Shown here piece by piece: positions 9,711 to 27,337 of a stretch of DNA of 46,883 nucleotides. Under the pieces are notes generated by a model. That model was not told the DNA's origin. It saw only the letters and a program-made list of their open reading frames with translations, and searched no databases. Made by a program: the position numbers and the translations under genes. Position 1 is the stretch's first letter; the number at the start of each line of letters is the position of its first letter. Source of the stretch: Chryseobacterium gleum (lineage in GTDB: Bacteria; Bacteroidota; Bacteroidia; Flavobacteriales_D; Crocinitomicaceae); assembly GCA_945902775.1 (NCBI GenBank), contig CAMDMY010000011.1, positions 1 to 46,883 of the forward strand, written 5' to 3'.

Positions 9711-9818
9711 ATTATAACTTCTTATTTCAAAACTAAAGTAATAATAAATACTGTTAAAAATGATTCCCGTCATAGTTAACACTCCTTTTCCAAACTAACT
9801 TCAAAAAAAAATTAGATT

Positions 9819-11198
9819 ATGAATAATTCAAAAATATCGATTCAATTTTTAGGTGCTGCGGAAACCGTTACTGGTTCTAAGCATTTATTAAAAACTCCAG
9901 AATTAAACATTTTAGTGGACTGTGGTTTATTCCAAGGTTTAAAACAACTTCGTTTAAAAAACCGAGAAAAACTTCCATTCAATGAAAAAGATATTGATAT
10001 ACTATTAATAACTCACGCACATTTAGATCATTGCGGATACATTCCTCTACTTGTAAAAAATGGATTCAAAGGCAAGATATTAATGACGTCTCCAACTAGA
10101 GATTTAGTGGAGATAATCTTAAGAGATAGTGCTAAAATTCAGGAAGAAGAAGCTAGAAGAGCGAATGAGGAAGGATATTCTAAACATAGTCCTGCTCTTC
10201 CATTATACATAGAAAAAGACGTTGAAAATTCGTTGAAATTATTTGAGGTAAGAAAAGATGAAGAATGGTATGAATTATCTAATAATATATCATTTCGCTA
10301 TCTAAAAAACGGACATATATTAGGTTCTTGCTTCATTGAAATCGAATGTTTTGGACGAAAAATAACCTTTTCTGGTGATATCGGCCGAAAAGAAAACGAT
10401 TTATTAAACGCTCCATCCATTTTAGAAAATGCAGATTTCTTGATTATGGAAAGTACGTATGGAGATCGTTTACATCCAAAAGGCAAAGCAATTGATGATT
10501 TACAAGATGTTATAACAGATACGATTAAAAAAGGAGGAACTTTATTGATTCCAAGTTTTGCAGTTGAAAGAGCTCAGGAGTTGATGTATCTAATAAATAA
10601 ATTAAAATCGGATAAAAAAATACCAGATTTACCTGTTTATTTAGATAGTCCAATGGGTGCAACTACAACCGATATATTTTTAAATAATCCAAGTTGGCAT
10701 AAACTTTCTCCTAGTGAAGCTCATACGATAAGTTCAAATATTTCAATAATTCGAGAATTTTCAGATACGCTAAAATTACTAAAAGACAAACAATCAAAAA
10801 TCGTAATTGCTGCAAGTGGTATGTTAACAGGAGGAAGAGTTTTAAGCTATTTAACTGAATTTGGAAAATCTCCTAAAAACACCATTTTACAAGTTGGATT
10901 TCAAGGTGAAGGAACACGAGGAAGAGCGCTAAAAGATGGAATTAGAGAATTAAAAATGTTCGGTAAATATTTTCAAATTGAAGCTGAAGTCAAAAACATT
11001 GATAAAATGTCTGGGCATGCAGATCAATTTGAAATGATTGAATGGTTAAGAAACTTCAAGGAAAAACCAGATAAATTATTTATTGTTCACGGAGAACCTC
11101 AGGCACAAAACATTTTTAGAGTAAAAATTCAAGATGAGCTATCGATATACCCTATTATTCCTAAGTTATGTGAAGAATTTGAATTATTTCAGCTATGA
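9819..11198 (+). CDS. Beta-CASP metallo-beta-lactamase fold nuclease (RNA specificity family)
   Basis: A 459-residue nuclease of the CPSF73/Ysh1-like beta-CASP group. The metallo-beta-lactamase core shows TVTGSKHLL, the HAHLDH zinc motif (66-71), HILGSCF and the FSGDIG aspartate motif. The beta-CASP cap follows with ESTYGDR, SFAVERAQEL, YLDSPMG, AASGMLTGGR and MSGHADQ, ending in FIVHGEPQ, which carries the last metal-binding histidine. Relatives are endo/exonucleases acting on RNA or, in some groups, DNA; the substrate here is not known. The stop codon overlaps the start of the ATP-cone nuclease as ATGA, indicating a two-gene translational unit. Confidence 0.92.
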   Translation: MNNSKISIQFLGAAETVTGSKHLLKTPELNILVDCGLFQGLKQLRLKNREKLPFNEKDIDILLITHAHLDHCGYIPLLVKNGFKGKILMTSPTRDLVEIILRDSAKIQEEEARRANEEGYSKHSPALPLYIEKDVENSLKLFEVRKDEEWYELSNNISFRYLKNGHILGSCFIEIECFGRKITFSGDIGRKENDLLNAPSILENADFLIMESTYGDRLHPKGKAIDDLQDVITDTIKKGGTLLIPSFAVERAQELMYLINKLKSDKKIPDLPVYLDSPMGATTTDIFLNNPSWHKLSPSEAHTISSNISIIREFSDTLKLLKDKQSKIVIAASGMLTGGRVLSYLTEFGKSPKNTILQVGFQGEGTRGRALKDGIRELKMFGKYFQIEAEVKNIDKMSGHADQFEMIEWLRNFKEKPDKLFIVHGEPQAQNIFRVKIQDELSIYPIIPKLCEEFELFQL

Positions 11199-12049
11199 AT
11201 AAAAACGATGATATAGTAGTTCGAAAATCGAATGGAAAAGATGAATATTTTTCATTCCAAAAATTAAGAAATTCACTCTTAATATCCAATGCATCTTTAA
11301 ATGAAGCAGATGGAATTGTGAATGAACTTAAAGGTAAAATATACCAAGGGATTAGCACTAAGAAAATTTACAGTATGGCTTTCAGAATGTTAAAAAAACA
11401 ATCTCCTGCTAATGCCTCTAGGTATCATTTGAAACAAGGAATAATGGAACTTGGCCCTTCTGGCTTTCCGTTTGAAAAATACGTAGGTGAATTATTTAAA
11501 CACGAAGGATTTGATACTATTGTGGGTGTCATTCTAAACGGAAAATGTGTAACGCATGAAATTGATGTAATCTGTAAAAAGGAAAACACAATAATGTTGA
11601 TGGAATGTAAATACAAAAATCAGCCAGGTGTTTCTGTTGATGTTAAAGTTCCTTTGTATATATATTCAAGATTTAATGACCTACTAGAAAACAACTTATT
11701 ACAAATACCATTTACAAACTTCAAAGGTTGGATTGTGACCAATTCAAGATTTACAGAAGACGCAATGAAATTTGGAACTTGTCGAGGAATGTATCTATTA
11801 GGTTGGGATTATCCTTATAAAAACTCATTGAAAGACATTATTGACAGAACCAAACTCTACCCAATCACTTGTTTATCAACACTTTTAAAAAATGAAAAGC
11901 AATACCTATTAGATAAAGGAATCGTTTTAGTTAAAGAATTAATAAACAGCGAACGTTTACTATCAAGAGCGGGAATAAGTTCGAATAGAATTCCTAAAAT
12001 TCTGGATGAATGTTCAACTTTGTGTAATTTCAATGTTGAATCTGAATAA
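11195..12049 (+). CDS. ATP-cone domain fused to an Mrr-like PD-(D/E)XK nuclease
   Basis: A 284-residue protein. Residues ~7-90 form an ATP-cone: VVRKSNGKDEYFSFQKLRNSL and the IYSMAFRML helix. This nucleotide-sensing module is best known from ribonucleotide reductase and NrdR. Residues ~92-205 form an Mrr-like restriction endonuclease domain with catalytic residues in HEIDVI (E122, D124) and MECKYK (E137, K139). Residues ~255-280 (LLSRAGISSNRIPKILDEC) resemble a helix-hairpin-helix. It probably cuts nucleic acid under control of ATP or dATP binding, but the target is unknown. Start overlaps the beta-CASP gene by 4 nt; its 3' end overlaps the convergent methyltransferase gene by 20 nt. Confidence 0.85.
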   Translation: MNKNDDIVVRKSNGKDEYFSFQKLRNSLLISNASLNEADGIVNELKGKIYQGISTKKIYSMAFRMLKKQSPANASRYHLKQGIMELGPSGFPFEKYVGELFKHEGFDTIVGVILNGKCVTHEIDVICKKENTIMLMECKYKNQPGVSVDVKVPLYIYSRFNDLLENNLLQIPFTNFKGWIVTNSRFTEDAMKFGTCRGMYLLGWDYPYKNSLKDIIDRTKLYPITCLSTLLKNEKQYLLDKGIVLVKELINSERLLSRAGISSNRIPKILDECSTLCNFNVESE

Positions 12050-27254: not shown

Positions 27255-27337
27255 TAGATTTTAGTATTTATTAGAATAATGGGATAAAATCACTAAATAA
27301 ACCCTTCAAGAAATATCGTTTAGATGATGAATATCAT

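What the first reader, a model, noticed from the sequence alone, without database searches (positions are those of the whole stretch)
9819..12049. Coupled beta-CASP nuclease and ATP-cone/Mrr-like nuclease
The two genes overlap as ATGA, so their products are made together. One is a metal-dependent beta-CASP nuclease; the other joins a nucleotide-sensing ATP-cone to a PD-(D/E)XK nuclease with intact E122, D124, E137 and K139. A nuclease gated by ATP or dATP levels next to a processing nuclease suggests a nucleic-acid decay, repair or defence module that I cannot match to a named system.
Basis: partly seen in the sequence, partly recalled or inferred. Interest (0 to 1): 0.62.

Follow-up and report, generated by a model that had tools for sequence, protein, structure and literature searches.

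The report
Stress-regulon RNase plus ATP-cone nuclease
Two co-translated bacterial genes, an RNA-cutting enzyme and a second nuclease that carries an ATP-sensing domain, stay side by side across many Bacteroidota and belong to low-oxygen/energy-stress gene sets rather than to antiviral defence, which suggests that such cells tie RNA breakdown to their energy state.

Summary
In detail: a 459-aa MBL/beta-CASP/RMMBL RNase-type protein (p1) and a 284-aa protein (p2) overlap as ATGA. p2 is an ATP-cone plus an AF1548-like PD-(D/E)XK domain, and both active sites are intact. The pairing is conserved. In 296 Bacteroidota genomes, 33 of 36 genes of the p1 subfamily lie beside p2 on the same strand, normally p2->p1; the window's genus has the swapped order. 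The defence reading fails: no viral or phage relatives and no defence neighbours. Relatives instead sit in energy-stress islands: universal stress proteins, D-lactate dehydrogenase, Hsp20, AMP/thymidine phosphorylase, PRPP synthase, phosphoketolase, acetate kinase. A CRP/FNR-type box TGAYN4RTCA is about 26-fold enriched in those islands over a control pattern, recurs 50-64 bp upstream of p1 in 5 of 10 pair-bearing genomes of the window's genus (window 9760-9773), and precedes a PAS-kinase/REC-CRP regulator operon in the window's own genome. Published Bradyrhizobium data show an MBL-hydrolase/thymidine-phosphorylase/PRPP-synthase operon to be microoxia-induced and FixK2-dependent. Best reading: an oxygen/energy-stress RNA-turnover module whose second nuclease is gated by adenine nucleotides through its ATP-cone. 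The gating and the RNA-salvage step are inferred, not shown.

The parts
9760..9773 (.). CRP/FNR-type palindrome ATGATTCCCGTCAT, centre about 52 bp upstream of the p1 start
   Evidence: Same box recurs 50-64 bp upstream of p1 in 5 of 10 pair-bearing genomes of the genus (shuffled mean 0.12, 0 of 5000 shuffles reach 5); class defined independently in relatives' islands. Chance of the strict form in this 108-bp gap is about 0.001.
9819..11198 (+). p1: MBL/beta-CASP/RMMBL ribonuclease of the TTHA0252 type
   Evidence: Pfam; PDB TTHA0252 E 3e-67; motifs conserved in 64 relatives
10572..10931 (+). Beta-CASP domain of p1 (residues 252-371)
   Evidence: PF10996, E 7.7e-31
10974..11162 (+). RMMBL (RNA-specificity) domain of p1 (residues 386-448)
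   Evidence: PF07521, E 1.4e-15
11195..12049 (+). p2: ATP-cone / AF1548-like PD-(D/E)XK protein; its start codon overlaps the p1 stop (ATGA)
11198..11443 (+). ATP-cone of p2 (residues 2-83); nucleotide-contact positions V9, K11, K23
   Evidence: VIA Z 10.1 to NrdR 9gex, offset +42, so V9/K11/K23 = EcoNrdR V51/K53/K65; conserved 52, 51 and 50 of 52
11453..11854 (+). PD-(D/E)XK nuclease domain of p2 (residues 87-220); active site E122, D124, E137, K139 at 11558-11611
   Evidence: 1y88 Z 22.3; AspBHI, EndoMS, Card1, Can2 Z about 10-11; 52 of 52 conserved; AF1548 catalytic D38/E51/K53 predicted in PMC1821046
11858..12013 (+). AF1548-like C-terminal domain of p2 (residues 222-273)
   Evidence: PF22357 above cut-off

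Best explanation
The pair is an oxygen/energy-stress RNA-turnover module. A CRP/FNR-type regulator switches the operon on when respiration fails; the best candidate is the PAS-kinase/REC-CRP pair on contig C61. p1 then degrades or processes RNA as a TTHA0252-like beta-CASP ribonuclease. p2 is a second, metal-dependent PD-(D/E)XK nuclease whose N-terminal ATP-cone binds adenine nucleotides and sets its activity by the ATP level, probably through a change of oligomer as in NrdR and ribonucleotide reductases. Where AMP/thymidine phosphorylase, PRPP synthase, phosphoketolase and acetate kinase accompany the pair, the released nucleotides could be salvaged or burnt for ATP. The window genome lacks a match to the phosphorylase family, so there the minimal output is controlled RNA decay. 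Shown here: the families, intact sites, conserved linkage, stress-gene setting and the box. Inferred: RNA as p2's substrate, gating by ATP, and the salvage flow.
For: Linkage: 33 of 36 p1-subfamily genes adjacent to p2 in 296 genomes; swapped order in the window's genus still keeps the pair, and that order forms one clade. Setting: USPs, D-lactate dehydrogenase, Hsp20, P-type ATPases, type II GAPDH, phosphorylase, PRPP synthase; p2-p1-phosphorylase-PRPP synthase with phosphoketolase and acetate kinase on a Chlamydiota plasmid and, without the last two, on a Pontibacter plasmid. Box TGAYN4RTCA: 157 intergenic against 6 for a control pattern, peak 40-80 bp before starts; 20 of 72 p2-operon heads against 1 (Fisher 2e-17); genus footprint; also upstream of the PAS-HK/REC-CRP operon and a USP in the own genome. 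Published: MBL hydrolase, PRPP kinase and thymidine phosphorylase induced at 0.5% O2 (PMC6515984), MBL hydrolase and thymidine phosphorylase down in a fixK2 mutant (PMC9104804). Structure: ATP-cone and AF1548 folds with conserved nucleotide contacts. A TTHA0252 disruptant changes global mRNA levels, PMC4229858.
Against: The window's own pair is alone: no stress genes next to it, and no TIGR02645 match in the genome. 21 of 54 p2 genes lack an adjacent p1, and some are followed by a P-type ATPase or another gene instead. The strict box is not enriched genome-wide (21 against 16 for the control) and is missing upstream of the pair in five genus members, in which the pair stands next to valS. One of the five box-bearing genomes (G302) lacks a close REC-CRP gene. 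The window box also lies upstream of the divergent hutD. The ATP-cone scores below its Pfam cut-off. The Bradyrhizobium operon is not known to include p2, and its MBL protein was not aligned to p1 here.
Confidence: 0.55

Rival explanations
1. Shutdown rather than salvage: under energy stress the two nucleases cut ribosomal, transfer or messenger RNA to stop translation and enter dormancy, much as stress toxins do; no carbon or energy is recovered.
For: Same regulon and setting; USPs and Hsp20 suggest quiescence; the window genome lacks the phosphorylase; ligand-sensor plus PD-(D/E)XK layout resembles Card1/Can2.
Against: Frequent phosphorylase, PRPP synthase, phosphoketolase and acetate kinase partners point to metabolism; TTHA0252 acts in ordinary mRNA decay.
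Confidence: 0.25
2. Antiphage defence: p2 senses a drop in ATP or dATP during infection and, with p1, destroys nucleic acids.
For: Nuclease plus nucleotide sensor; p1 is distantly like Cas14 of type VII CRISPR (402.7 bits against a cut-off of 800) and the p2 nuclease domain like Can2/Card1.
Against: No phage or viral-contig relatives of p2; neighbours are not defence genes; microoxia and FNR-type control.
Confidence: 0.06
3. DNA repair or genome protection: p2 is a DNA endonuclease (like EndoMS or AspBHI) that acts when dATP pools change, and p1 is only a neighbour.
For: p2 domain resembles EndoMS, AspBHI and Hjc-type folds; ATP-cones often read dATP.
Against: Tight linkage to an enzyme with an RNA-specificity domain; no repair genes among recurrent neighbours; p1 falls far below the repair exonuclease model TIGR04122 (46.6 of 325 bits).
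Confidence: 0.1

Closest known systems
Ribonuclease TTHA0252 (Thermus thermophilus, PDB 2dkf)
   Same: Same MBL/beta-CASP/RMMBL layout over nearly the whole p1 (E 3e-67); 5'-3' exo- and probably endo-RNase per PMC4229858
   Different: Not known to be paired with an ATP-cone nuclease or under oxygen control
AF1548 (PDB 1y88) / Pfam AF1548-like_C
   Same: p2 residues 87-280, Z 22.3, 31% identity; same catalytic residues as predicted in PMC1821046
   Different: The archaeal protein has no ATP-cone: its 199-aa chain starts at the nuclease domain; function untested
NrdR and ribonucleotide reductase ATP-cones
   Same: Cone fold (Z 9-11) and nucleotide-contact V/K/K positions
   Different: Output domain is a nuclease instead of a Zn-ribbon or a reductase; EcoNrdR E59 equivalent is variable here
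Card1/Can2 ligand-gated PD-(D/E)XK nucleases of type III CRISPR
   Same: Sensor domain plus related PD-(D/E)XK domain (Z about 10; PADLOC CARF_PDDEXK E 2e-7)
   Different: ATP-cone replaces CARF; no CRISPR genes seen nearby
Bradyrhizobium bll3117-bll3116-bll3115 (microoxia-induced, FixK2-dependent)
   Same: Thymidine phosphorylase family, PRPP kinase and MBL hydrolase, as in the p2-p1 operons; box ATGATCTGGGTCAA like the window's
   Different: No ATP-cone nuclease reported; sequence identity to p1 not measured here

Membership tests
Beta-CASP ribonuclease (TTHA0252-like) | MBL + Beta-CASP + RMMBL domains | tested here: met
   all above cut-off
Beta-CASP ribonuclease (TTHA0252-like) | Motifs 1-4 and A-C intact | tested here: met
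   invariant or nearly so in 64 relatives
Beta-CASP ribonuclease (TTHA0252-like) | RNase activity | not testable with these tools
   only inferred from TTHA0252
ATP-cone | Cone fold | tested here: met
   AlphaFold2 model against NrdR, Z 10.1, 1.9 A; Pfam score below cut-off (22.9 of 25.8)
ATP-cone | Conserved nucleotide-contact residues | tested here: met
   V/I9, K11, K23 in 52, 51 and 50 of 52 at the EcoNrdR V51, K53, K65 positions
ATP-cone | Binds ATP or dATP | not testable with these tools
   needs calorimetry or a structure
AF1548-like PD-(D/E)XK | Homology to 1y88 and AF1548_C | tested here: met
AF1548-like PD-(D/E)XK | Acidic/acidic/Lys active site | tested here: met
   D124, E137, K139, plus E122, in 52 of 52
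Type VII CRISPR Cas14 | Score above NF045584 cut-off (800 bits) | tested here: not met
   402.7 bits
Ligase-associated exonuclease TIGR04122 | Score above cut-off (325 bits) | tested here: not met
   46.6 bits
Antiphage defence system | Presence in defence islands or viral contigs, or a curated defence model | tested here: not met
   only generic MBL, CARF-PDDEXK-domain, permease and methyltransferase hits
CRP/FNR-type stress regulon | Box upstream, phylogenetically conserved | tested here: met
   absent in the valS-linked members of the genus
CRP/FNR-type stress regulon | Induced by low oxygen or energy stress in this organism | not testable with these tools
   only Bradyrhizobium data for partner genes

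The most novel reading that the evidence does not exclude
An energy-charge-gated RNA-scavenging system: on loss of respiration the cell, through an ATP-cone nuclease and a beta-CASP RNase, turns its own RNA into nucleotides that AMP phosphorylase, PRPP synthase, phosphoketolase and acetate kinase convert into ATP. RNA then acts as an emergency fuel, and the ATP-cone is the fuel gauge.
Probability: 0.22. Interest if true: 0.85.

Novelty: new variant of a known kind. Interest (0 to 1): 0.6.

Why it matters
ATP-cones are best known as regulators of deoxynucleotide synthesis; a cone that gates a nuclease would extend this sensor to nucleic-acid decay. The pair and its box give a specific, testable link between respiration failure and RNA turnover across Bacteroidota. 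They also give a candidate function to proteins now annotated only as 'ATP cone domain-containing' and 'MBL fold' and to the microoxia-induced phosphorylase/PRPP-synthase/MBL operon of Bradyrhizobium, for which I found no functional discussion in the passages I read of the two papers.

Tried and rejected
Defence: phages, viral contigs and PADLOC gave nothing specific. Cas14 and TIGR04122 membership rejected on scores. Genome-wide enrichment of the strict box in the window's genome: not seen, so the case rests on relatives' islands and the genus footprint. Literature on ATP-cone/Mrr or AF1548 function: one prediction paper only. A Bacteroidota FNR motif in PMC8510549: none usable. The survey of other phyla is limited: the one genome-contig scan kept its best 80 loci, nearly all Bacteroidota, so distribution elsewhere is known only from plasmids. 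A p1 relative with the phosphorylase and PRPP synthase but no annotated ATP-cone gene occurs on two Alphaproteobacteria plasmid stretches read with their annotation.

Full report
OBSERVATION. p1 (9819-11198, +, 459 aa) and p2 (11195-12049, +, 284 aa) overlap as ATGA. p1 carries MBL, Beta-CASP and RMMBL domains above Pfam cut-offs. Its closest solved relatives are Cas14 of type VII CRISPR and the RNase TTHA0252 (E about 1e-67), but it reaches only half of the Cas14 cut-off. All catalytic motif residues are present and conserved in 64 relatives. p2 matches Mrr_cat and AF1548-like_C above cut-off and ATP-cone just below. Its model (mean pLDDT 92.7) resolves this: residues 2-81 superpose on NrdR's ATP-cone (Z 10.1, 80 residues, 1.9 A), and 87-280 on AF1548 (Z 22.3). 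V9, K11 and K23 fall at EcoNrdR V51, K53 and K65, nucleotide contacts named in PMC12176259, and are conserved in 52, 51 and 50 of 52 relatives; E122, D124, E137 and K139 are conserved in 52 of 52. A 2007 paper predicted D38/E51/K53 of AF1548 as catalytic (PMC1821046); by the alignment these are D124, E137 and K139.

IS THE PAIR REAL? Two searches of the same 296 Bacteroidota genomes were crossed by coordinate. p2 occurs at 54 places in 49 genomes. Of 36 genes in the p1 subfamily (at least 430 bits), 33 are adjacent to p2 on the same strand, with gaps of at most 309 bp. All but the window's have p2 first. The window's genus has p1 first, and so do two MAG contigs, L031 and L032; on the p2 tree the window and these two form one clade (100/97), while linkage as a label changes 13 times against 36 for shuffled labels. 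In the genus the unit lies in different places, beside hutD, valS, an aminoacyl-tRNA-synthetase-like gene or an outer-membrane-type gene, yet stays together. p2 is not bound to p1, however: 21 of 54 copies have no adjacent p1, and some are followed by a P-type ATPase, an 84-aa gene or others.

SETTING. In 80 named loci with up to 10 kb flanks, recurrent neighbours are universal stress proteins, D-lactate dehydrogenase, copper and cation P-type ATPases, archaeal-type AMP/thymidine phosphorylase, PRPP synthase, type II GAPDH, a DeoC/LacD-type aldolase, phosphofructokinase and Hsp20 (Hsp20 by its sequence only). On a Chlamydiota plasmid the order is phosphoketolase, glycogen phosphorylase, p2, p1, thymidine phosphorylase, PRPP synthase, acetate kinase; on a Pontibacter plasmid 2-hydroxyacid dehydrogenase, p2, p1, phosphorylase, PRPP synthase. 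Rhizobial and roseobacter plasmids carry p1 relatives with phosphorylase and PRPP synthase but no annotated p2. In three Bacteroidota loci the gene two downstream of p2 is an ATP-cone fused to a glucoamylase (PF10091 and PF03477 above cut-off for the one scanned). No phage or viral contig holds p2. The window's flanking genes are ordinary: ffh, amino-acid permease, hutD, a TPMT-like methyltransferase, SpoIIE-type phosphatase. This is not a defence island.

REGULATION. A search for palindromes in the islands' intergenic DNA picked out TGAT-N4-ATCA (49 against 3 expected) and ATGAC-N4-GTCAT (7 against 0). TGAYN4RTCA occurs 157 times between genes against 6 for a control pattern, with a peak 40-80 bp before start codons; 20 of 72 p2-operon heads (the window's included) have it against 1 for the control (Fisher 2e-17). 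The window has ATGATTCCCGTCAT at 9760-9773. Among ten pair-bearing genomes of the genus, five have such a box 50-64 bp upstream of p1, with different spacers and different neighbours; 5000 shuffles gave a mean of 0.12 and never five. The valS-linked members lack it. In the window's own genome two boxes stand roughly 60 and 80 bp upstream of a PAS histidine kinase followed by a REC-cNMP-HTH_Crp regulator on contig C61. The same two genes lie in the relatives' islands (64% identity to the L045 regulator). A close copy of the regulator (81% or more) is present in four of the five box-bearing genomes and in none of the five box-less ones; because the box-less group is mostly one lineage, this is a clade-level agreement only. 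A separate FNR-like protein with N-terminal cysteines on C38 is an alternative regulator.

INDEPENDENT EXPERIMENTAL SUPPORT. In Bradyrhizobium diazoefficiens the MBL hydrolase bll3115, PRPP kinase bll3116 and thymidine phosphorylase family protein bll3117 rise at 0.5% O2 in protein and transcript (PMC6515984). bll3115 is 30.6-fold and bll3117 6.6-fold lower in a fixK2 mutant, with a box ATGATCTGGGTCAA at -74; phosphoketolase and acetate kinase behave likewise (PMC9104804). I did not align bll3115 to p1; the link rests on p1 relatives next to the same partner genes on rhizobial plasmids.

MECHANISM. Most likely p1 is a TTHA0252-like RNase (TTHA0252: 5'-3' exo- and probably endo-activity, global mRNA effects, PMC4229858) and p2 a second nuclease whose ATP-cone reads adenine nucleotides, both made when respiration fails. 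Whether ATP switches p2 off, so that it fires on ATP loss, or on is unknown; the metabolic setting favours firing at low ATP. Where the phosphorylase operon is present, RNA ribose could feed PRPP, pentose phosphates, phosphoketolase and acetate kinase to make ATP; this last step is inference from established enzyme families. The window genome has no match to TIGR02645, so there the flow would end at nucleotides.

VERDICT. I found no description of the pair in the papers that could be searched. Parts are known families; the combination, a cone-bearing nuclease tied to an RNase inside a CRP/FNR-type stress regulon, is a new variant.

Noticed in passing
L005:2685-3828, L006:1241-2385, L009:2687-3831: An ATP-cone fused to a putative glucoamylase (PF10091), two genes downstream of p2 with a glutaredoxin-like gene between: a second enzyme apparently placed under an ATP-cone in the same setting.
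   Followed up: partly
window 11546-11548, 11606-11608, 11780-11782 (p2 C118, C138, C196): Three cysteines are invariant in 52 p2 relatives and also present in AF1548; a metal or redox site is possible but distances were not measured.
   Followed up: no
L207:1749-4028 (contig C61 of the window genome): PAS histidine kinase plus REC-cNMP-HTH_Crp response regulator with two TGAYN4RTCA boxes upstream. It looks like FixL plus a FixJ/FixK fusion; the PAS has a histidine that, from memory, sits where FixL has its haem ligand. Not tested.
   Followed up: partly
L207:1265-1630: A 121-aa protein without a Pfam match, preceded by a box and next to the regulator; similar-looking small proteins stand near p2 in L037 and L107.
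   Followed up: no
window 27324-27337: A second strict box, ATGATGAATATCAT, 99 bp upstream of hemE (uroporphyrinogen decarboxylase).
   Followed up: partly
window 9819-11195 (p1): p1 matches phrog_36352 (phage family of unknown function) at E 4e-92 over its whole length, so some virus carries a p1-like protein; p1 itself was not searched in phage records.
   Followed up: no
G198 (three p2 copies), G103 (two copies): Some genomes have two or three p2 copies, one of them without a p1 next to it.
   Followed up: no
L083:12228-12776: A P-loop AAA_28/dNK-like protein recurs after p2 or p1 in six loci; it could supply a nucleoside or ribose-phosphate kinase step.
   Followed up: no
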